DNA of 58,723 nt from a virus. The stretch is from positions 1-58,723 of the IMG/VR virus record IMGVR_UViG_3300045955_000216; one strand, given 5' to 3'. Position numbers and translations under genes: made by a program. Shown piece after piece: positions 411 to 58,723 of the stretch. The notes beneath the pieces are model-generated. The model worked only from the letters and a program-made list of their open reading frames with translations, made no database searches and was not told where the DNA came from. How positions within the stretch are numbered: the first letter of the stretch is position 1; every line of letters begins with the position of its first letter.

Positions 411-439
411 TTGACCGAAGCCGTTTCGCGTGCTATAAG
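411..439 (+). promoter_or_regulatory. Rightward promoter P1 of the accessory operon
   Basis: TTGACC (411-416), 17-base spacer, TATAAG (434-439), with TGC just before the -10 (extended -10). The 16 bases 425-440 recur exactly at promoter P2 (1777-1792). It precedes the run of plus-strand genes that starts at 468. Confidence 0.75.
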
Positions 440-1763: not shown

Positions 1764-1791
1764 TTGACGAATCCGATTCGCGTGCTATAAG
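1764..1791 (+). promoter_or_regulatory. Rightward promoter P2
   Basis: TTGACG (1764-1769), 16-base spacer, TATAAG (1786-1791) with TGC before it. Bases 1777-1792 match P1 exactly while the flanks differ, suggesting selection on the -10 region or a shared regulator. Confidence 0.7.
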
Positions 1792-8300: not shown

Positions 8301-8617
8301 GCGTCGTCTCCTTGCCATCGCCAGACGGGCGACTCGTGTCCGTGGTTGCTTGGGTGCGCGGACCGTCGGGCCCCGACCTTCTGCCAGCCCTTGCCGGCGA
8401 AGATGGGGCCCCACGCCTTGCCGCTCGAGGGCTCGAGCCCGAGCTCGGCCGCCCGCACCCGGAGGTCGTCGATGTGGACGCTGCCCCGCTCGACCGACAG
8501 CCGGATCGCCTCGGCCCGCATCCGGAGGACGAAGGCCCGGTCCGCGCTCACGGCCTGATCCATGCCGATCCGCTTGCGCCGGAGGCCGGTCGGGAGGTCA
8601 AGCTGGATGGGCGTCAT
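8297..8617 (-). CDS. Conserved-type phage protein, 106 aa
   Basis: The motif AWGPIFAGKGWQKVG followed by SAHPSNHGH and WRW is familiar from small phage proteins of unknown function next to methyltransferase or resolvase genes. Helix-rich N-terminus (LRMRAEAIRLSVERGSVHID) suggests a winged-helix-like fold. ATGA overlaps at both ends. Confidence 0.6.
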   Translation of the reverse strand: MTPIQLDLPTGLRRKRIGMDQAVSADRAFVLRMRAEAIRLSVERGSVHIDDLRVRAAELGLEPSSGKAWGPIFAGKGWQKVGARRSAHPSNHGHESPVWRWQGDDA

Positions 8618-9635
8618 CGCGTCTCGAGGTAGGCCCGGAGGAAGACCGCCGCGACCTGCGGGACGATGGCGTTGCCGTAGGCGCGCAGGCGTCCCACACG
8701 GGCGGGAACCCCATGAGCCAGCGGACGAATGCCGGATTCAGCCGGGGGGACTCGCCGGAGCTTGCCGTCGGAGCAGGCGAGCCACTCGGCCCCCCCCCAC
8801 GCCGCGGACGCTGCCCCCCGAGCACCTGGTCCGTCAGACTCATCCCCGGGTGCGCCGTCGAGCCCGCGAGGTTCCGATTGCCCGCGCCCACCGCGTCCAT
8901 CCGGGTCGGCGTCGTCCAGCCGGCATAGAGCTGCGTCGCCATCCCGAGCTGGAGCCCCGCGCCGTTCCCGTTGTGCCACCGGGCCTTGAGGCGCGCCTGG
9001 CGCGCCTCGTGCGTCGCCGGCTCGGCGTGGACATTCATCGCCTGCGCGTCCGGCGTCGGCCAGCCCGCGGCGAGTAACGCAAAGTCCTGGAGATTCCGTC
9101 TCTCGCCCTGCGTGCGCTCCACCATCCCGCCCCGCTCGGCATTCGTCACCGCGGGACTCGGCCACCCAGTAGAGCCGCTGCCGGATGTGCGGTGCGCCGA
9201 CGCCCGCAGCGCACAGATCGGCGGCCCCGACGGCATATCCCAGGTCTTCCAGGTCAGCGCGTACTCCGGCGAGCCAGTGCCGGCCAGCGCGGCTCGCAAC
9301 CTGCTCGCCAGCGATGACTGGAGGGCGGCACTCGGCGATGAGCCGGAGAAAAGCGGGCCAGAGGTGCCTCTCGTCGAGAACGCCCGCAGCGCGGCCTGCG
9401 CTGGAGAAGGGTTGACACGGGCAGGACCCGGTCCAGATCGGCGCGTCATCCGGCCAACCGGCGAGGGCGAGCGCCTGCTCCCACCCGCCGAGCCCGGCGA
9501 AGAGGTGGACCCGCCGAGCCCCGGCAAGGTCGCCTGGTCGCACGTCGAGGATGCTCCGGCCGTCGACGTGGGCGTCGGGGTAGAGGGCCCGGAGCCAGGC
9601 GGCGGCGTAGGGGTCGTGGTCGTTGAAGTAGACAT
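8598..9635 (-). CDS. Second open frame of the methyltransferase gene, frame B (345 aa)
   Basis: This frame has no stop over the whole gene and contains runs recalled from database proteins linked to DNA methyltransferases: SLASRLRAALAGTGSPEY, LTWKTWDMPSGPPICALRAS, then GWPSPAV, GWPTPDA, GWTTPTR and LNPAFVRWLMGFPPVWDACA. GC3 favours this frame at about 8820-9110, favours frame A at 9450-9640, and is similar for both between. No clear ribosome-binding site was found for ATG 9635. It may be an overprinted gene, the target-recognition part of a frameshifted enzyme, or a shadow preserved by constraint on frame A. Confidence 0.45.
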   Translation of the reverse strand: MSTSTTTTPTPPPGSGPSTPTPTSTAGASSTCDQATLPGLGGSTSSPGSAGGSRRSPSPVGRMTRRSGPGPARVNPSPAQAALRAFSTRGTSGPLFSGSSPSAALQSSLASRLRAALAGTGSPEYALTWKTWDMPSGPPICALRASAHRTSGSGSTGWPSPAVTNAERGGMVERTQGERRNLQDFALLAAGWPTPDAQAMNVHAEPATHEARQARLKARWHNGNGAGLQLGMATQLYAGWTTPTRMDAVGAGNRNLAGSTAHPGMSLTDQVLGGQRPRRGGGPSGSPAPTASSGESPRLNPAFVRWLMGFPPVWDACAPTATPSSRRSRRSSSGPTSRRDDAHPA

Positions 9636-9642
9636 CCCTCAC
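8614..9642 (-). CDS. C5-cytosine DNA methyltransferase, frame A (342 aa)
   Basis: Transfers a methyl group from S-adenosylmethionine to cytosine C5 in DNA. Motif I is VHLFAGLGGWEQAL (about 45-58), motif IV GSCPCQPFS (about 72-80, catalytic Cys), then GEQVAS in place of the usual ENV, motif VIII IRQRLYWVAE and motif X RAYGNAIVPQ near the end. GTG start overlaps the upstream TGA. The target-recognition stretch in this frame (about 8820-9110) is Gly/Arg/Asp-rich with many A/T third positions, while the overlapping frame there has normal GC3 and looks like protein (see 8598-9635). Either the product shifts frame or two proteins are made. A role in protection from host restriction is likely. Confidence 0.8.
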   Translation of the reverse strand: MRDVYFNDHDPYAAAWLRALYPDAHVDGRSILDVRPGDLAGARRVHLFAGLGGWEQALALAGWPDDAPIWTGSCPCQPFSSAGRAAGVLDERHLWPAFLRLIAECRPPVIAGEQVASRAGRHWLAGVRADLEDLGYAVGAADLCAAGVGAPHIRQRLYWVAESRGDECRAGRDGGAHAGRETESPGLCVTRRGLADAGRAGDECPRRAGDARGAPGAPQGPVAQRERRGAPARDGDAALCRLDDADPDGRGGRGQSEPRGLDGAPGDESDGPGARGAASAAWGGAEWLACSDGKLRRVPPAESGIRPLAHGVPARVGRLRAYGNAIVPQVAAVFLRAYLETR

Positions 9643-20859: not shown

Positions 20860-23800
20860 TCATCGGCCGAGGCGCTCCCGGACCCCGTCGAGGAGGTCCC
20901 CGCGGGCGTCCCGCTGGGCCCGATGGACGATCGACTGGATCTCGCGCTTCTGCTCGTCGCGATCGAGCGCCCGGTAGGCCGGATCCTCGAGAAGGCCCAG
21001 GAGGTCCTCGCGGGCCTCGGCACCCCAGGTCCGGTGGTAGAGCCGGCGCTCCCGCTCGAGGAGCTCCACCTTCTCGCGGTCGACCGTGAGGCTCCGGGGC
21101 GGTGCGGCCGGGACGTAGCCGACCCGGGCGAGCTCCCGCTCGACGGCCTTGTCCGGCCGGGGGGCGTTCCGCCGGATCGGCGAGACCATCCGCTCGAGCG
21201 CCGTCTCGCCGCTCGTGAGGGCGCCGCCGAGAGCCCCGCGCTTCGCCGGGAGCTGGTTCCGGAGGCCGGGGAGCTGGGCCTGCATGGCCGCCACCGGCCC
21301 CTCGATCTCGCGCTCGGTGTCGTCCAGGCCGCGGGCGATCGACCCGAGGAGCCCGCCGGCCGGGATCATCCCGCGCGCCTGGCCCTCGAGCCACGACTCC
21401 CCGTACCGGAGCGGATCCGCGAGCATGTTGGAGAGCCCGAGGAGCCCGCCCAGGAAGGTCTTGTTCGTGATGTTCTGGGCCACGGCCCGGAGCATCGCGT
21501 CGGCCTTCTGTGCCGCCTTCTGCTCCTCACCGCCCCGGGCGAGCTCGACGATGTCGGCCGCCATCCCGAGGAGCCCGCCCACCGGCTCGAGCCGGTTGTA
21601 GGCGAAGGACCCGACGCCCGGCACCGTGACGCTGTAGGGCTGCCAGCCGGCCTCGCGCTTGGTGCGGAGCGTGTCCCGGTCCTCGCCGCCGCCGCCGCCG
21701 GTGACGTACCCCGCGGCCGCCAGGGCACCGGCGGCCAGCATGACCATCGACCCGAGGAACGGCCGCGCCAGGTCCTCGGCGAGCGCGCGCGGGACGCCCC
21801 CGAGCTCCCGCTGGCCCTGGGTGTACTCGCCCCGCCGGGCCCGCATCACGACCGGCACGAACCCGAGCGGCGTGCGCTCAAGCGTGGCCTTCATGATGTT
21901 CGCCGGCGTCCGGACAAACGGGATGACGTACCGGAGGGCCGGAATGGTCTCGCGGCCCCAGAGGACCCACTGGCCCATCTTCCCGAGCTTCTGCTGGAAC
22001 GTCCGGTAGTCCTGGGCGCCCTGGGCCCGGAGGAGCATCCCCGGCGTCGGGTCGGCGATCAGGGCCGACATCCGCCGCGCGAGGGCCTCGCCCTGGTGGC
22101 CCTCTTGGAGCGCGATCCGGAGCGCGCCGGCGTGAATCTCCGCGTCCCAGACCATCGCCTTGAAGGCCGCGTCCTCCGCGGAGAGCGCCCGGAGCGGGGC
22201 CCGGATGACGCGCCCCGCGCGGCCGCCGATCGCCGGCGGGCGCGCCTCGACGCGCCCCAGGTCGGCGCGCGTCTCGAGCTGCCAGGCCGCGACGGCCTTC
22301 CCGAGGGCCCGGCCGCTCGTGAGCGCCGACAGCATCCCCGCGACCTCGGCCATCCCCTCGCGGGCGAAGACCTCCCGCTGCCGGCCGGTGAGCTTCGCGA
22401 GGACCGCGTCGATCCCGCCGGCCAGCGTCCGCTCCGCGGTGTTCGACGCCATGAAGAGGGTGTTCCCGATCATGTTGGCCGCGTGCGATTGCGGGCCCGA
22501 GAGGATCGAGGACAACCAGGCCTCATAGAGCTTGTCGGACCAGCGGCGCTCCTGGGCCTTCCGGAGGAACGACGAGAGGCCGCGCGTGTCGCCGTCCGGC
22601 AGCGCGGCCGCGAGCTCGAGGACCTCGAGCGTCCGGGCCCGGTTCCGCGCGCCCGTGGCCTCGCCGCGCTCGCCCGTGACGGCGCCCTCCCCGCCGAAGA
22701 GCTCGAGGGCCGCCTGGAGCGCCTTCCCCTCAAGGGGCTTTCCGGCCTTGGCGCTCTTCGCCAGGATCCGGTGCGCGGCGAGCGCGCGCGCGATCTCCGT
22801 CGTCGCCCCTTCGACCTCGCCCTGGAGCGCGATGTGCGCGGCGGCCGCGCGCGCGAAGCGGTCGACCAGGGCGTCGGGGATCGGCTGGCCCTCGTGCTGG
22901 AGGGTCCGGTACTCCGCCTTGATCCCCGCGAGCCGCTCCGCCGAGGCCAGGAGAATGTTCCGCGCCTGCGTGATCTGCTCGGCGTTGAGCGTCCCGCCGA
23001 GGACCCGCCGGCGGATCCTGCCCTCGTCGAGGCCCGCCTCGAGGGACAGCCGCTCGATCTCCTCGAGCGTCATCGTGCCGCGGCGCCGCTCCATCATATG
23101 CCCGTGGTGCTGCTGGTGGAGCTGCGAGTACAGGTACTTCACGTCGACCGCCGTATCGAGCCGGTCGAGGTTCGTGCCGGTGTCGGTGTCCACGCCGGCC
23201 CGGCCGGTGGCCCGCACGACGAGGTCCGTGTCCGACGCGGTCGCGGTGGGCGCGGCGGCGCCGACGCTGCGCGCCGGCGTGGCCGCGGCGCGCGCGAGCC
23301 ACTTGGCGTGGGCGCCGCCGAAGAGGGCCTCCGATTTCGCGATGTCGGCCGCGCGCTCGGCGCGCTCGGCGGGCGTCAGGGTCTCCACCTTGCGGCCACG
23401 CCACTTCTCGTAGATTTTCCAGCCGGCGTCCTGCACGGCCCCGACGTCCTGGCCGACGAGCTGGAGCTCGGCGATCAAGCCCGTCGGGAGCTCGATGGCG
23501 ACGTGGATCGCGCGGTAGCCGCCGATCTTCGGCTTCTCGAGAAAGTTTTCGATGTCGACGACCGGAAACTCCCGGCCGACGGCCTCGAGGACCCGCGCGG
23601 CGTCCCCGGGGGCGTCGATCCAGACCCGGCCGCCTAGGTAGTCGACCCAGGCATCGCCCGGACGGGCCTGGAGCTTCTCGGTAATCCGGTGCTTGGCGTC
23701 GCTCTTGACCCTGGGCGGGTAGCGGTCCGGGAACGTCAGCCCCGGGGTATCGACGGCCAGCCGCCGGAGGCGCTGCTCGTACTGTGGCCGATCGTCCTCG

Positions 23801-26800
23801 GCGCGGGCCAGGAGGGTCGGGACGTCCGCCGTGTCCTGGTACGCCTCATAGGTCGGCTCGGACGGCAGCGGCGCGGTGTTCGGGCGCTCCGGCAAGGTGC
23901 GGAGGCGTGTGCGCCCTGGGGCGCGGACGACCTCGGCCGGGTCGAAATTTGCTATACTTGGGTCGATGGAGCCCACCGTGGTCAAGGTCTGGGAGGTCGG
24001 CCGCGAGGACGGGGGCGGATTTATCCGCACCGTCGAGCTCTCGAGCGGCTCGGTTCGCGGCGAGGTCTGGTCCGCCGCGGCCAAAGCCTGGATTCCGGCG
24101 CCCGGCATGGACGCGGGCCGGATCTTCCGCGCCTCTCGGCCCTCCGCCGAAGAGCTCGCCGCCGCCGGCATCCCCGCCTGACCCTCGAGGCTCTGCCCGA
24201 CCCGTATATCGCCCTGGGCCGCCATCCGCTCGCGGAGTCGCTCCTGGAGCGTGGCTTCATCGGCGGCGCCCCGCGCGCCTTCCCGGGACACCCCGCGCGA
24301 CGCGACGTACTCGCCGGTCGCCGGCTTCCCGAACCGGACCGCGTACACGCTGACGTGGCTGCCCGTCTGGAGGTCCTTGTCGGCGGCCTGGACGAGGAAG
24401 TTTAGCGTCCCGCCGACCGTCCCCGCGTTCCGGCCGGCGAGACCGGAACCCCGCCCGCTGCCCACGCGGAAGACGAGGTCCTCGCCCGGTTCCGCCTTCG
24501 GGTCGCCGAGGTTCTCGACGAACGTGCGATAGGCCCCCTGGGGTCGGAGCTCCTCGAAGAGGTTGATTCCGCGGAGCGCCTGGTCGAGCGGGATCGTCGA
24601 GAGGCGCCGCTCCGTGTACGCGCCGCCCTCGGGGAAGTAGTACCAGCCGCCCAGCTTGAAGCCGACCGGCGGCCGCGGATCCTCTCCGCCCCGCGGTTCC
24701 GCCGCCCCGACCCCGCCGAGGTCCGGCTCCCCCGCCGTGCGCGCCGCGAGGTCCGCCGGCGCCCCGAAGAGGTCGCCCTGGCCGGCGGCCCGCGTGTCGG
24801 CCTCGTCGCGCGCCTCGAAGTTGAAGAGGTTCCGCTCGCTCCGCTCCGACTCAAGGGGCGGCTTCGTCGACCCCTTCCGGATCGGGCCCGCCGACATCTC
24901 GCGCCGCTCGGTGCCGGGCATGACGTACTGGTCGCCGGCCTCGGTCTTCTCGACACGCGGCGCGGCCGCCCCTACGCCCTCGAGCTCCGGCTCCCCGGCG
25001 ACGCGGGCGGCGAGGTCGGCAGGCGGAACCGCCGTGGCCGCTCGTCCCCGAGGGACGTCAGGTGCGGCATCGCCCGCCGTAGCTCCCGCAGGACGACCGC
25101 CTGGTCCGCCTCGGAGAGCTTGGGGTAGCGCCTTGCGGAGGGCGCTGTACGTTTGTTCCCGGACCGCATGGCGTCCCTCCCCGGCCGCGAGGCGCGCGGC
25201 CCCCTGGTTGAGCACGTCGGCCACCGGGCCTTGGACGTGCTTCAAGCGATCGAAGAGCTCGAGCAGGACCGCGGCCTCCTGGCTGACGCCCTGGCTCCGG
25301 GCGACGTCAATCACGTTGCCCTCGGCCTGGAGCCGCTGCGCCGCGCGTGACTTGCTGACGGTCGAGAAGAGGCGCTTGTCCTGCGAGAGCCGATCGCGAA
25401 GGTCGGCGACCAGCTTGGCCTTCTCGACGACGGCCGCCTCTTGGCGCGTGTCAGTCCCGAAGAGCGTCTCCTCGGTGACCGCGCGGGTCGGCGCCGAGGC
25501 CGCCATCCCCGCGAGCTCGGCGACGTCCTTGTCCCGGAGCGGCCGGCGCTTCTCGAGGCGCTCGAGGGCCTGGACGAGCTTGAGCTGCGCGTCTGGATCC
25601 TGGACCCGCTCCCCGATCAGGACCGCCCGCGGCGTGGAGAGCTTCCCCGTCTGGACGCGCGCGAAGACGGGCGCCGTCAGGTTCCCGAGCGCGAGGCCTT
25701 CGCGGACCACCGACTCGCGCATCGGGACGCCCTGGGTGCGGAGCGTCTCGGCCGTAAGCCCGGTGTCGCGGAAGAACTTCGCCGCGTCGAAGGCGGTGCC
25801 CCGGCCCTCGGCGATGTTCATAAGCGCGCCGACCGCGCGCGCCTGCTCGGCCGTCTCGGCCTCGACCTCGAGGACGGCGATCGACGCCGGCGCGGACGGA
25901 TCCCCCGCGGCCCCGAGCTCGCGCGCCTTGTTGACGCGGTTGTGGCCGTTGAGGACCTTGAGGCGCTGGTCCGCGGGATCCCGCCAGACGGCGACGACGC
26001 CGGCGAGGTTGGGATCCCACCGCCGGACGCCGGTCAGGCTGCCGGTGCTGCCGCTCTTCTCCCGGTTGGAGACCTTGAACTGGAAGCGGTCTGGCTCGAG
26101 GTCCAGCTCGGCGAGCGGCACCTCGCGGACGCGGGTCGGCGCGGCCTCGGGGCCGGCCTCCACCCGGAGCTCGGCCTCGGTGGGGCCGATCATCCGCGCG
26201 GTGCCGGCCAGCCGGAGGCCCTCGCGGACCAGCGGACTGTCGGGATCCACGCCAAAGGCGCGGAGCTGTTGCGGGCCGAGGCCGTACTCCCGGAAGAACG
26301 CGGCCGCGTCCTGGGCGGAGGTCCCCGTCGTGGACGGGCGGTCCACCGCGAAGCCCTGCTCGGCGCTCGCCTTGGGTCGGCGGTCGCGCACGAGGTTGTC
26401 GACGACCCCGAGCGTCCGGGCGGTCTCGGCATTCGGGGCCTGGAGGAACCGGACCCGGATCTGCGGGACCCCCTGGGACTTCGCCAGGTTGAGCCGGTTG
26501 TGACCGTTGATGACGTACACCTGCCCGTCGGCCGGATCCCGCCAGACCAGGAGCCCGTTCCGGTCCCGCGCCGGGTCGTACCGCTGGCGGGGGTCGAACG
26601 TCCCGCTGGCGCCGCTCTCCGTCTCGAGGCCCGCCAGCTTGAACTGGAACCGGCCGGGGTCGGCCTTGACCGATCCGGTCGGGAGGAGCGCCTGGCCGGG
26701 CTCGAGCGGGATCTCCCGCGACGGGATCTCGGAAATCCCCTCCTGGGACGCCGGGGCGGGCCCAGGCGCGCGATCGGCCGGAGGGGCCGGTATCTCCCCC

Positions 26801-28710
26801 TCGGCGGCCTCGGCCTGGCGCGCCCGGATCGTCTCGAGGATCCGGGGCCCGCTGGCGGGTGGGGGCGTGACCTCCACCTGGCCGCCCTCGGGTGTCACGG
26901 GGGCGACCGCCGCGGCGGCCGTCTCGGCCTCCCCGGGGCGGGTCAGGACCGTTTGGACCTCGCGGCCAGCGTCGTCCTGGACCTGGACCTGGCTGGTTGG
27001 GTCGCCCGGGGTCGGCTTGGCGTCGACGCCGTACCCGAGGAGCCGCCCCGCCCGGCCAGCCCGGTACTCCTCGGCGACCCAGCGGTCGAGCATCCGGCCG
27101 GACAGCCCGGGCGGCGCCATCGCCTCGATGGCCGGCCGGCTGTAGTAGAGGGCGTTCCCGTTCGGGAGCTGGGCGACGCGGATCCGCTCGCCGCGCCGCT
27201 GGGCGCCCGGGCGAAAGTCGGCGTCCCACTCGAGCGGGACCTCGACCGCGGGCTTGTCGCCACGGGCCAGGGCGTTGAGCTGGGCCCGGACCGCCCGCGG
27301 GCTTTCCGGGAGCGTGCGGCGCTCGGCCTCGGCCTGGGCCGCTGCCTCGCGGGGGGCCGCCTGGGGCCCGCGGATGACGGCCCCACCGCCCGCGCCGAGA
27401 ATCCCGCCGATCGAGGCCGCCTCGAGGATCTCGCTCGACGGCGCCTGTTGGCCGGCCGCGGTCGCGCCGATGCCGGTCTGCATTCCTTCTTCGATCGCTT
27501 CGCCGGCGCCGCTCCGGAGGCCCCGCCGGACGAGCCTGCCCGTCCCGAGGATCGGGCTGAATCGTTGGGTGATGGTCAGGAGGAGCGCGTTCCCCACCGC
27601 CGCGCGGTTGCCGGCCGCGACCGCTTGCGTCGCGTCGCCGGTCTCGGCGAGGACGCGACTATACGTCTCGCCCGCGCCGGAGAGCGCCTGGCCGAGGCCT
27701 TCCACCGCGACGCCGGTGAGGCGCGCCAGGCGCGGCGCGATCTGCATGATCCGCGCGCTGACCGCGGCGGCGCCCATACCCGGGACCAGGAAGGCGGCCA
27801 GCGAGCCGATCCCCTGGAAGAGCTTGTCCGCATAGGTGGGATCCTTGACCCCGAGCGTGTCGGCGACCTCCGTCGCGGCCAGGCGGAAGTCCCGGAAGAG
27901 GTCCTCGGGGATCCCGACCTGACGCGCGAGAAGCTCGGCGCCGCCGGCCACACTCGCCACCGCCCCCGCGACGCCGGTCCCGACGCCCCGGCCGATCCGC
28001 TCGGCCGCGTTCATCGGTGGAGCCGGGCCTGGCTCCGGCCGGTCCGCCGCGACCCGCCGCGCGATGTCGGGGCTTGACTCCACGCCGGGGCCCACCTCCA
28101 CGCTCCCGCCCTGCCCGGACATCACGAGGGCCCGGGCGGCATCCGGCATGATCGCGCCCTGGGCGGCCGCGAGGCGGCGCCCCGTCGGGGTCCGGCCCGC
28201 CGCGTCCGGCTGGTCCAGGCCCGGGGTAACCTGGATCGGCCGCTCGCCGGCCAGGGGCGTCGTCACCGGGACGTCCGTGTTGCGCGCGACGGGCGGCGGG
28301 ACGGGCTGGCCGGTGCGCGTGTCCTTCCCGTCGACGATGAGGTTCGGATGGCCCGCCAGCTTGAACGTGCTCGGCCAGTGCCCCGTCGCGTCGGGGGCGG
28401 CGCCCGCGCGGTAGGCGGCGCGGTAGTCGTACTGGTGCGTGGGATCATCCGGATCCGGATGGAGGCCCTGCGCCTGGGCGTGCTTCGCGTACCAGGTGCG
28501 GAAGCCGGGGTCGTCGGGGCCGTCCTCGACGACCGTCCCGCCGGCGGAGACGGTGCCTTCCGCGCGGGCCCGCGGCGGCCGCTCGAGGCCGAAGAGTCGA
28601 TCGAGGTCGTCGACGCTCGGGCCCGACGCCGCGGCTGACGCGGCCGGGGTGCCGCGGGCGGCCGGCCCCGGCCCCCCGAAGAGCCGGTCCAGGTCTTCGA
28701 CCGTCGGCAC
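20860..28710 (-). CDS. Giant polyvalent ejection protein with ParB-like and RelA/SpoT-like domains, 2616 aa
   Basis: N-terminus carries two copies of VxDLDRLFG. Residues 60-120 hold a podoviral motif (YDYRAAYRAG, GHWPSTFK). About 230-470 is Gly/Ala-rich and membrane-like. Two DdrB-type ParB-superfamily domains follow (about 690-850 and 870-1010; VINGHNRLN and VLNGHNRVN). Near 1410 lies a small domain (VFRVGSGRG, SVYAVRFG) that could be ADP-ribosyltransferase-like. About 1610-1815 looks like a RelA/SpoT synthetase (VDYLGGRVWID, KPKIGGYRAIHVAI, AELQLV). The last 700 residues contain the polyvalent-protein pattern YEAWLSSILSGPQSHAANMI and hydrophobic segments. Phage polyvalent proteins enter the cell with DNA and act on the host. 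Acts between tail and coiled-coil ejection genes; the nested plus-strand gene at 23966 lies in a linker. Confidence 0.8.
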   Translation of the reverse strand: MPTVEDLDRLFGGPGPAARGTPAASAAASGPSVDDLDRLFGLERPPRARAEGTVSAGGTVVEDGPDDPGFRTWYAKHAQAQGLHPDPDDPTHQYDYRAAYRAGAAPDATGHWPSTFKLAGHPNLIVDGKDTRTGQPVPPPVARNTDVPVTTPLAGERPIQVTPGLDQPDAAGRTPTGRRLAAAQGAIMPDAARALVMSGQGGSVEVGPGVESSPDIARRVAADRPEPGPAPPMNAAERIGRGVGTGVAGAVASVAGGAELLARQVGIPEDLFRDFRLAATEVADTLGVKDPTYADKLFQGIGSLAAFLVPGMGAAAVSARIMQIAPRLARLTGVAVEGLGQALSGAGETYSRVLAETGDATQAVAAGNRAAVGNALLLTITQRFSPILGTGRLVRRGLRSGAGEAIEEGMQTGIGATAAGQQAPSSEILEAASIGGILGAGGGAVIRGPQAAPREAAAQAEAERRTLPESPRAVRAQLNALARGDKPAVEVPLEWDADFRPGAQRRGERIRVAQLPNGNALYYSRPAIEAMAPPGLSGRMLDRWVAEEYRAGRAGRLLGYGVDAKPTPGDPTSQVQVQDDAGREVQTVLTRPGEAETAAAAVAPVTPEGGQVEVTPPPASGPRILETIRARQAEAAEGEIPAPPADRAPGPAPASQEGISEIPSREIPLEPGQALLPTGSVKADPGRFQFKLAGLETESGASGTFDPRQRYDPARDRNGLLVWRDPADGQVYVINGHNRLNLAKSQGVPQIRVRFLQAPNAETARTLGVVDNLVRDRRPKASAEQGFAVDRPSTTGTSAQDAAAFFREYGLGPQQLRAFGVDPDSPLVREGLRLAGTARMIGPTEAELRVEAGPEAAPTRVREVPLAELDLEPDRFQFKVSNREKSGSTGSLTGVRRWDPNLAGVVAVWRDPADQRLKVLNGHNRVNKARELGAAGDPSAPASIAVLEVEAETAEQARAVGALMNIAEGRGTAFDAAKFFRDTGLTAETLRTQGVPMRESVVREGLALGNLTAPVFARVQTGKLSTPRAVLIGERVQDPDAQLKLVQALERLEKRRPLRDKDVAELAGMAASAPTRAVTEETLFGTDTRQEAAVVEKAKLVADLRDRLSQDKRLFSTVSKSRAAQRLQAEGNVIDVARSQGVSQEAAVLLELFDRLKHVQGPVADVLNQGAARLAAGEGRHAVREQTYSALRKALPQALRGGPGGRPAGATAGDAAPDVPRGRAATAVPPADLAARVAGEPELEGVGAAAPRVEKTEAGDQYVMPGTERREMSAGPIRKGSTKPPLESERSERNLFNFEARDEADTRAAGQGDLFGAPADLAARTAGEPDLGGVGAAEPRGGEDPRPPVGFKLGGWYYFPEGGAYTERRLSTIPLDQALRGINLFEELRPQGAYRTFVENLGDPKAEPGEDLVFRVGSGRGSGLAGRNAGTVGGTLNFLVQAADKDLQTGSHVSVYAVRFGKPATGEYVASRGVSREGARGAADEATLQERLRERMAAQGDIRVGQSLEGQAGMPAAASSSAEGREARKIRPASMPGAGIQALAAADQTSPRTEPLESSTVRINPPPSSRPTSQTLTTVGSIDPSIANFDPAEVVRAPGRTRLRTLPERPNTAPLPSEPTYEAYQDTADVPTLLARAEDDRPQYEQRLRRLAVDTPGLTFPDRYPPRVKSDAKHRITEKLQARPGDAWVDYLGGRVWIDAPGDAARVLEAVGREFPVVDIENFLEKPKIGGYRAIHVAIELPTGLIAELQLVGQDVGAVQDAGWKIYEKWRGRKVETLTPAERAERAADIAKSEALFGGAHAKWLARAAATPARSVGAAAPTATASDTDLVVRATGRAGVDTDTGTNLDRLDTAVDVKYLYSQLHQQHHGHMMERRRGTMTLEEIERLSLEAGLDEGRIRRRVLGGTLNAEQITQARNILLASAERLAGIKAEYRTLQHEGQPIPDALVDRFARAAAAHIALQGEVEGATTEIARALAAHRILAKSAKAGKPLEGKALQAALELFGGEGAVTGERGEATGARNRARTLEVLELAAALPDGDTRGLSSFLRKAQERRWSDKLYEAWLSSILSGPQSHAANMIGNTLFMASNTAERTLAGGIDAVLAKLTGRQREVFAREGMAEVAGMLSALTSGRALGKAVAAWQLETRADLGRVEARPPAIGGRAGRVIRAPLRALSAEDAAFKAMVWDAEIHAGALRIALQEGHQGEALARRMSALIADPTPGMLLRAQGAQDYRTFQQKLGKMGQWVLWGRETIPALRYVIPFVRTPANIMKATLERTPLGFVPVVMRARRGEYTQGQRELGGVPRALAEDLARPFLGSMVMLAAGALAAAGYVTGGGGGEDRDTLRTKREAGWQPYSVTVPGVGSFAYNRLEPVGGLLGMAADIVELARGGEEQKAAQKADAMLRAVAQNITNKTFLGGLLGLSNMLADPLRYGESWLEGQARGMIPAGGLLGSIARGLDDTEREIEGPVAAMQAQLPGLRNQLPAKRGALGGALTSGETALERMVSPIRRNAPRPDKAVERELARVGYVPAAPPRSLTVDREKVELLERERRLYHRTWGAEAREDLLGLLEDPAYRALDRDEQKREIQSIVHRAQRDARGDLLDGVRERLGR
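23950..23966 (+). promoter_or_regulatory. Extended -10 promoter of a leaderless transcript
   Basis: TGCTATACT (23950-23958) is followed after seven bases by ATG 23966, so RNA would begin at or next to the start codon. No good -35 is seen. It shares TGCTATA with P1 and P2. It lies antisense in the polyvalent gene. Confidence 0.5.
23966..24181 (+). CDS. Nested antisense small protein, 71 aa
   Basis: Encodes MEPTVVKVWEVGREDGGGFI, then RTVELSSGSVRGEVWSAAAK, AWIPAP and a C-terminal SAEELAAAG. It has normal amino-acid composition and mostly G/C third positions. The opposite strand here (polyvalent residues about 1510-1582) is low-complexity Pro/Ser/Ala with more A/T thirds. There is no ribosome-binding site but a -10 seven bases before ATG. 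It may be a small gene inserted into a linker, possibly an immunity-type partner of the adjoining domains; that is speculation. An accidental frame is the alternative. Confidence 0.5.
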   Translation: MEPTVVKVWEVGREDGGGFIRTVELSSGSVRGEVWSAAAKAWIPAPGMDAGRIFRASRPSAEELAAAGIPA

Positions 28711-39716: not shown

Positions 39717-40634
39717 TCAGGCGCCCCCCAGGTACCATTGCCACACGTCCGGGCGGTCCTTCTTCAAGCGCGCCTTTTGGTCGTCGGTCATGGCGTGAAT
39801 CTGCGGGCGCGTGAGCCCGGTGCGAGCGGAGGTGGAACCGGGAAGAGCGCCGATCCCACGCGGCCGGTCGGCCGCGGCTACGACCTGTTGAACGGTCTCG
39901 CGGCGCCCGCGGGCTTCCCCACGGATCTCCGCGTCGGCTTCGCGTTCTTTCGCGAGGCGGCCCTGGGCGTACTCGTAGGCCGTCCGCGCGGGGTCTTCGG
40001 ACTGGTAGATGTGCTGGTAGAGCCACGGGTCCCGGGGGCGCCCGCTTTGCGCGTCCGGTCGGATGTCCGCCAGGACGCCGCTCCGGCGGAGGACGTCCCG
40101 GTAGTCCTTGTGGTCGCGCTCAAAGGCCGTCTGCGTGCGGGCCACCTTCTCGGCCACCAGGGCCGCATCGCGCGCCGCGAGCTCGCCCCGGACCCGTTGC
40201 TCGATGCGCTGCTCGAGGTCCGCGGCGATGTCGTTGAGGCTCTTGAAGCGGTTGGTGTCCTCGTAATTCGGCCGTTCCGGCTGACGCCGGGCTTCGGCTT
40301 CCCGGCGCGCCCGGGCGGCCTCCTGGTGGTACTCCTCCCGGAGCCGCTCGGATTCCTCGAACTTCCGCTGATACTCCTTCCGTCGGCTGCGCTCAGCATC
40401 GAGCGCCGCCTTCGGCACCATCGGGGCCCGCTTCTCCCCGTCCGGGGGGCGGGTCTCCGTCGCCGGGGGCGCGCCCTCGGCGGTCGTCGCGGCCGGCTCG
40501 CTGCCCTCGGCGCCCGGTGTCGGGGTCTCGGCGTCCGCCGGAACCTCGACCGGGACGTCCTGGAGCAAGTCCGCCGGGAGCTGGACCTCGAGGACCTCTT
40601 GATCCGGGTCGACCACTTGGGTCTCTGGTGCCAT
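39717..40634 (-). CDS. Capsid scaffolding protein, 305 aa
   Basis: An acidic disordered N-terminus, central coiled coil (about 80-125, KEYQRKFEESERLREEYHQE) and a basic C-terminus are the hallmarks of tailed-phage scaffolds. It lies directly upstream of the capsid gene and downstream of the portal. No protease motif seen. Confidence 0.75.
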   Translation of the reverse strand: MAPETQVVDPDQEVLEVQLPADLLQDVPVEVPADAETPTPGAEGSEPAATTAEGAPPATETRPPDGEKRAPMVPKAALDAERSRRKEYQRKFEESERLREEYHQEAARARREAEARRQPERPNYEDTNRFKSLNDIAADLEQRIEQRVRGELAARDAALVAEKVARTQTAFERDHKDYRDVLRRSGVLADIRPDAQSGRPRDPWLYQHIYQSEDPARTAYEYAQGRLAKEREADAEIRGEARGRRETVQQVVAAADRPRGIGALPGSTSARTGLTRPQIHAMTDDQKARLKKDRPDVWQWYLGGA

Positions 40635-58457: not shown

Positions 58458-58723
58458 CCGAGCACCTCCACCAGCTCCGCCCGGAGGCGCTGGAGCTTAG
58501 CGATCTTCGCGTCGAGGGCCGCCACCGCCGCATCCGTCCCGAGGATCCCGGGGCCCGTCGGCTTCGGCCGGCGCCCGGGCTTCGCGCGCGCCGGGGCCGG
58601 CGGCTCGGCCGCGTGGACCTTCCGGATATGCCGGGCGCGGGCCGGCCCGTGCGTGATCCGCGCGCATTCCCCGCACCCTGGCCGAGGCGACCACTTCCCC
58701 GCTGCTCGTGTCATCCGCGGATC
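58454..58723 (-). CDS. Tandem C2H2-like zinc-finger protein, C-terminal part (continues at 1)
   Basis: This end encodes MTRAAGKWSPRPGCGECARI with finger two, a Pro/Arg linker and helix AAVAALDAKIAKLQRLRAEL. ATG 58714 (equal to 118) is internal: the frame stays open upstream in the join, where finger one lies. ATGA overlap with 58332-58457. Confidence 0.6.
   Translation of the reverse strand, partial: DPRMTRAAGKWSPRPGCGECARITHGPARARHIRKVHAAEPPAPARAKPGRRPKPTGPGILGTDAAVAALDAKIAKLQRLRAELVEVLG
58597..58723. repeat. Terminal direct repeat, right copy
   Basis: Identical to 1-127. Unique circle is 58,596 bp. Confidence 0.9.

What the first reader, a model, noticed from the sequence alone, without database searches (positions are those of the whole stretch)
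23950..24181. Leaderless small gene nested antisense in the polyvalent gene
TGCTATACT lies exactly seven bases before ATG 23966 with no ribosome-binding site, the hallmark of leaderless transcripts. The 71-aa frame is protein-like with high GC3, whereas the opposite strand here is a low-complexity linker with degraded GC3. It sits between two possible effector domains.
Basis: seen in the sequence. Interest (0 to 1): 0.75.

Follow-up and report, generated by a model that had tools for sequence, protein, structure and literature searches.

The report
Small gene hidden antisense in phage gene
Inside a giant phage gene for an injected multi-domain protein, the opposite strand carries a promoter-like box and a 71-codon reading frame that looks more like a real gene than the giant gene does there, so the phage probably hides a small self-driven gene in a spacer of a larger one.

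Summary
The box, the 7-base spacing and the 71-aa frame are as described. The GC3 argument is wrong: third positions of the two genes face each other, so both read GC3 0.90. (1) TGCTATA occurs only three times in this complete, probably temperate phage genome (127-base terminal repeat). Two copies are the −10 boxes of early −35/−10 promoters; the third is this one, in a run of five A/T-ending codons unique in the decoded coding sequence. (2) Codon-based frame decoding flips to the + frame at 23949-24172. The ORF beats the sense frame by 13-17 nats, while 1423 other coding windows in the same relative frame reach at most −5.5, and synonymous resampling of the linker never reaches the observed value. 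The same decoder found a second nested ORF that is conserved in a relative. Limits: no homologue of the product found, the only near relative has exchanged this cargo region, other relative frames hold comparable anomalies, nothing shows transcription. Best reading: an autonomously transcribed, probably leaderless small gene embedded antisense between cargo domains of a virion polyvalent protein, acting like a prophage accessory gene. Relic, antisense RNA or chance remain possible.

The parts
23948..23958 (+). extended -10 promoter-like box TTTGCTATACT; no -35 match by consensus scan; seven bases before the ATG
   Evidence: TGCTATA occurs three times in the genome, the other two in early -35/-10 promoter-like sites; in the antisense gene it needs the rare codon run CCA AGT ATA GCA AAT
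23966..24181 (+). 71-codon ORF MEPTVVKVWEV...AAAGIPA plus TGA; predicted four strands and a C-terminal helix (low confidence)
   Evidence: frame decoding 23949-24172; codon outlier; AlphaFold2 single sequence pTM 0.43 against 0.13 for the sense product of the same DNA
23965..24180 (-). interdomain linker (aa 1511-1582) of the polyvalent protein, sense product of the same DNA; predicted without secondary structure
20860..28710 (-). 2616-aa polyvalent/internal virion protein gene that contains the ORF antisense
   Evidence: (phrog_21 and phrog_6651 matches)
23311..23913 (-). RelA/SpoT-like nucleotidyltransferase cargo domain downstream of the linker
   Evidence: PF04607 21.4 bits, E 3.3e-4, below the curated cut-off of 27; GTP pyrophosphokinases of the PDB, best E 0.0019
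24175..24678 (-). cargo domain upstream of the linker, unidentified
   Evidence: no family match
411..439 (+). early promoter-like site TTGACC-N17-TATAAG with TGC before the -10; reference copy of the shared TGCTATA box
1764..1791 (+). early promoter-like site TTGACG-N16-TATAAG with TGC before the -10; second reference copy
24972..25169 (-). second nested ORF, same strand, shifted frame, 65 aa, Shine-Dalgarno-like GGGGAGGGA; conserved in the relative; positive control for the frame decoding

Best explanation
The + strand of the linker between two cargo domains of a virion polyvalent gene carries a genuine small gene. Host RNA polymerase would start from an extended -10 box (TGCTATACT) so that the transcript begins at or next to ATG 23966, giving a leaderless mRNA for a 71-aa protein. 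Because this box does not depend on the late-gene programme and points against the late genes, the gene would be expressed mainly when late genes are off (lysogeny), like a prophage accessory ('moron') gene, and shut down by opposing transcription in late infection. The likeliest origin is capture of a compact gene in reverse orientation when cargo modules were exchanged, its antisense being read through as a spacer. Shown: box, spacing, open frame, codon signature, absence from the relative. Inferred: transcription, leaderless start, timing, function.
For: TGCTATA occurs three times against 0.27 expected, all on the + strand; the other two sit in TTGAC-N16/17-TATAAG sites just upstream of early genes. 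The box lies in the only run of five A/T-ending codons in the decoded coding sequence, expected 0.013. Frame decoding switches to the ORF frame at 23949-24172; with three other training sets the switch starts at 23946-23966 and always ends at 24172. ORF minus sense log-likelihood is +13 to +17 nats (the value depends on how stops and codon number are treated) against a maximum of -5.5 in 1423 windows of the same relative frame; synonymous resampling of the linker gives z 4.5-5.0 and 0 of 5000. The decoder's other flip inside this gene is an ORF conserved in the relative. Same DNA, two readings: the + product is predicted as a four-strand sheet plus helix (pTM 0.43), the linker without secondary structure (pTM 0.13). 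The phage has an integrase and a repressor-like gene.
Against: No homologue in phages, plasmids, viral contigs or species genomes; the seed-based scans need exact short matches and are insensitive. The one near relative has exchanged this region, so conservation cannot be tested. Comparable codon anomalies in another relative frame occur at 9.3 kb, inside a real methyltransferase gene, and at 39.83-39.96 kb. No -35, no terminator. Mean pLDDT of the ORF model (58.8) is lower than that of the linker model (65.6). No RNA or protein data.
Confidence: 0.58

Rival explanations
1. Captured relic: the segment was once a small gene of another element, inserted in reverse during cargo exchange; it now serves only as a spacer of the polyvalent protein, and promoter, start and codon signature are leftovers.
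For: The cargo region is a replaced module relative to the near relative. All codon evidence speaks for coding history, not for present expression.
Against: Promoter box, start, whole frame and stop are all intact, and the codon signature has not decayed, so the capture would have to be recent.
Confidence: 0.2
2. The box drives an antisense RNA whose effect, not its small ORF, matters: it would block expression of the internal virion protein in the lysogen or of a superinfecting sibling, as STnc6030 of prophage BTP1 does (antisense to a tailspike and a putative DNA-injection gene, superinfection exclusion; PMC7067206).
For: Position and orientation match: antisense promoter-like box inside a virion/injection-type gene of a probably temperate phage; no terminator found after the ORF, so the transcript could be long.
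Against: Does not explain why the codon signal of the + frame covers just this ORF or why the box stands at leaderless spacing. No Rfam match.
Confidence: 0.1
3. Chance: in this GC-rich gene the wobble-opposed antisense frame has few stops, a linker rich in Pro, Ser, Thr and Ala reads antisense as Gly, Glu/Asp, Val and Ala (protein-like), and the -10-like box is accidental.
For: The polyvalent gene has only 23 stops in that antisense frame over 2616 codons. The bare motif rule is expected 0.77 times per genome. The best outside match, E 0.1 on a plasmid without annotation, has no support as a gene. Codon anomalies of similar size exist elsewhere in other frames.
Against: Codon choice favours the ORF even with the linker's amino acids held fixed (z 4.5-5.0; maximum elsewhere in that frame 3.2-3.9). 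The box is the phage's own promoter heptamer, and box and codon signal coincide.
Confidence: 0.12

Closest known systems
Leaderless (TA-led) bacterial genes with a TANNNT -10 motif next to the start codon (PMC3160421, PMC12340547, PMC3898074)
   Same: -10-like hexamer TATACT directly upstream at suitable distance, no Shine-Dalgarno sequence
   Different: lies antisense inside another gene; has the TG extension; the host and its use of leaderless starts are unknown
Prophage accessory ('moron') genes with their own promoter, antisense to lytic genes, such as STMMW_20121 of ST64B (PMC7067206)
   Same: own promoter-like box, orientation against the late genes, absent from the relative, phage with integrase and repressor-like gene
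   Different: embedded within a late gene instead of between genes; no terminator found; expression unknown
Embedded antisense overlapping genes, such as pop antisense to ompA of E. coli O157:H7 (PMC7103648) and those reviewed in PMC7457138
   Same: open frame wholly antisense to a longer gene
   Different: 71 codons, limited to a linker, and with a codon usage typical of the phage's own genes
Antisense RNA STnc6030 of prophage BTP1 (PMC7067206)
   Same: antisense transcript (here only predicted) against a virion/injection-type gene
   Different: here the + strand has coding character and a start at leaderless spacing

Membership tests
Leaderless (TA-led) gene | TANNNT-type -10 motif about 10 bp upstream of the start codon | tested here: met
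   TATACT 23953-23958, ATG 23966
Leaderless (TA-led) gene | no Shine-Dalgarno sequence before the start | tested here: met
   CTATACTTGGGTCG before ATG holds no GGAG-like core
Leaderless (TA-led) gene | transcription starts at or within a few bases of the start codon | not testable with these tools
   needs 5'-end mapping
Prophage accessory (moron) gene | own promoter, independent of the late genes | tested here: inconclusive
   the same heptamer stands in two early promoter-like sites; activity not tested; no -35
Prophage accessory (moron) gene | terminator after the gene | tested here: not met
   none after the ORF within 23700-24500 by a simple scan
Prophage accessory (moron) gene | inserted between phage genes | tested here: not met
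   it lies inside gene 20860-28710, which stays open
Prophage accessory (moron) gene | absent from otherwise related phages | tested here: met
   not in the near relative, whose cargo region differs, nor found in 28 further records
Embedded antisense overlapping gene | open frame wholly antisense to an established gene | tested here: met
Embedded antisense overlapping gene | evidence of translation or of selection on the antisense frame | tested here: inconclusive
   codon statistics favour the frame; no homologues, no ribosome data
Polyvalent protein (the gene that contains the ORF) | very long multi-domain phage protein with exchangeable effector-type domains | tested here: met
   2616 aa; conserved ParB-like and tail regions 56-60% identical to the relative, middle replaced: RelA/SpoT-like here, RadC/JAB there; RelA/SpoT in polyvalent proteins is described in PMC5512222

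The most novel reading that the evidence does not exclude
The 71-aa protein is a self-protection factor encoded antisense in the spacer of the weapon it controls: made in the lysogen from a leaderless message, it would neutralise the RelA/SpoT-like domain of the injected polyvalent protein, or exclude superinfecting siblings, so that effector and immunity share the same DNA on opposite strands.
Probability: 0.06. Interest if true: 0.85.

Novelty: new variant of a known kind. Interest (0 to 1): 0.52.

Why it matters
Gene callers mask antisense frames, so genes hidden in interdomain linkers of giant phage proteins would be missed everywhere. If linkers of polyvalent proteins regularly shelter small genes (two candidates in one gene here, one of them conserved in a relative), these modular proteins also carry a hidden gene set, possibly regulators or immunity factors of the cargo. 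A codon test that holds the sense protein fixed offers a cheap way to screen for them.

Tried and rejected
GC3 as a coding argument: rejected, third positions are shared. Homologue searches: phages and plasmids by tblastn, viral contigs and genome contigs by seeds, two degenerate peptide motifs over viral contigs (GEVW-x6-W[IV]P and GFIRxV[DE]L), 28 records of relatives, Pfam, PHROGs, NCBIfam, PADLOC, PDB sequences: nothing convincing. The Rhizobium plasmid match (E 0.1) was taken as chance. A short match of ORF residues 47-70 to the ParB-like region of the relative (E 0.005 in one genome, 13 bits) was judged too weak. Fold search of the low-confidence model: no match with E below 0.3. Short direct repeat 23912-23924 / 24210-24222 as an insertion scar: about 0.3 such pairs expected by my estimate, rejected. 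First codon tests used some misframed training genes and were redone with decoded frames. RNA family in the region: none. Bacterial relatives could not be sampled because the window is a virus record.

Full report
Setting. The window is a virus record whose ends share a 127-base direct repeat, so it looks like a complete genome of about 58.6 kb. It has an integrase (PF00589), a repressor-like protein, an exonuclease and a RecT-like protein, a major head protein distantly related to podovirus heads, a portal and a terminase. Most of 16.9-58.7 kb is coded on the − strand. The gene 20860-28710 (−) codes for 2616 aa with matches to an internal virion protein and a ParB-like region and fits the polyvalent proteins of PMC5512222. 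The nearest relative found, IMGVR_UViG_3300043178_000202 (G001), shares 55-60% identity in the conserved parts. The middle (window aa 1210-1828) is replaced: a RelA/SpoT-like domain and an unidentified domain here, a RadC/JAB domain there. The ORF lies in this exchanged part.

Observation. TGCTATACT is at 23950-23958, ATG at 23966, the stop at 24179-24181; there is no Shine-Dalgarno sequence. The two frames are wobble-opposed, so the high GC3 of the ORF is the GC3 of the linker (0.90 each); the abnormal feature is the inverted GC1/GC2 order of the linker. Few stops fall in this relative frame (23 in 2616 codons), so openness is cheap.

Promoter evidence. Nine hexamers within one mismatch of TATAAT exist on both strands. 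TGCTATA occurs three times, expected 0.27, with no shuffle of 100 reaching three. Two copies belong to TTGACC-N17-TATAAG (411-439) and TTGACG-N16-TATAAG (1764-1791), just upstream of early + strand genes. The third is this one, without a −35. In the sense gene it is written with CCA AGT ATA GCA AAT, the only run of five A/T-ending codons in the decoded coding sequence (0.013 expected). The other long runs lie in stretches that the decoding assigns to other frames.

Coding evidence. A codon model trained on the window's genes and a seven-state decoding keep the polyvalent frame across the ORF at a high switching penalty. At lower penalties the decoding flips at 23949-24172 to the ORF frame. The flip persists when the model is trained without the polyvalent gene, on it alone, or on + strand genes alone. 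The ORF beats the sense frame by 17.3 nats, or 13.5 when both frames are compared per codon; 1423 windows of other coding sequence in the same relative frame have mean −33.9, sd 10.7 and maximum −5.5. With the linker's amino acids fixed and codons redrawn, the observed value is never reached in 5000 draws (z 4.5-5.0; elsewhere in this frame at most 3.2 to 3.9). Caution: in the in-register antisense frame two other places show similar values, 9.3 kb inside a real C5 methyltransferase with atypical codons and 39.83-39.96 kb, so such a signal can reflect foreign codon usage. The decoder's other flip in the polyvalent gene, 25019-25126, turned out to be a same-strand ORF with an aligned ATG and a purine-rich ribosome-site-like stretch in G001. 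It has 41% identity over 56 aa, and over its last 38 residues it is better conserved than the main frame (BLOSUM sums 79 and 40). This supports the method.

Product. There is no homologue in any collection that could be searched; the seed-based scans only reach close relatives. A single-sequence AlphaFold2 model has four strands and a helix with low confidence (pLDDT 58.8, pTM 0.43); the sense linker has no secondary structure (pLDDT 65.6, pTM 0.13). Foldseek gives no significant match.

Mechanism. Most likely a compact gene with its own −10 box, in reverse orientation within an exchanged cargo segment; its product would be made when late genes are silent and its message would start at the ATG. 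This works like a prophage accessory gene but is not filed as one: no terminator was found and it is embedded in a gene. The antisense RNA reading has a precedent in STnc6030 of BTP1 (PMC7067206, read by passages). That the product controls the neighbouring RelA/SpoT-like domain is only a suggestion: the domain sequence shows DYLGGR, KPKIGGYRAIH and ELQ, which I recognise from general knowledge as synthetase-type motifs, and toxic small alarmone synthetases with antitoxins are known (PMC11782079, title and abstract only).

Verdict. A plausible hidden gene with two partly independent lines of sequence evidence, no comparative or experimental proof, and function unknown beyond inference.

Noticed in passing
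24972-25169 (-): Second nested ORF (65 aa) in the polyvalent gene, same strand, shifted frame, with a Shine-Dalgarno-like GGGGAGGGA; conserved in G001 (L007:3875-4042, 41% identity over 56 aa, start codons aligned, purine-rich stretch upstream in both). No match in phages.
   Followed up: partly
39834-39962: Stretch of gene 39717-40634 (-) where the in-register antisense frame fits the codon model better than the sense frame (z 7.5); gene without family match.
   Followed up: partly
window aa 1209-1828 of the polyvalent protein, + coordinates 23227-25086: Cargo region wholly exchanged between two phages whose flanking parts are 55-60% identical: RelA/SpoT-like plus unknown domain here, RadC/JAB there.
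   Followed up: partly
8614-9642 (-): C5 cytosine methyltransferase with codon usage unlike the rest of the phage, possibly a recent acquisition.
   Followed up: no
1-127 and 58597-58723: 127-base direct terminal repeat: the record looks complete.
   Followed up: no
411-439 and 1764-1791 (+): Two early promoter-like sites sharing TTCGCGTGCTATAAG, possibly with a common operator.
   Followed up: no
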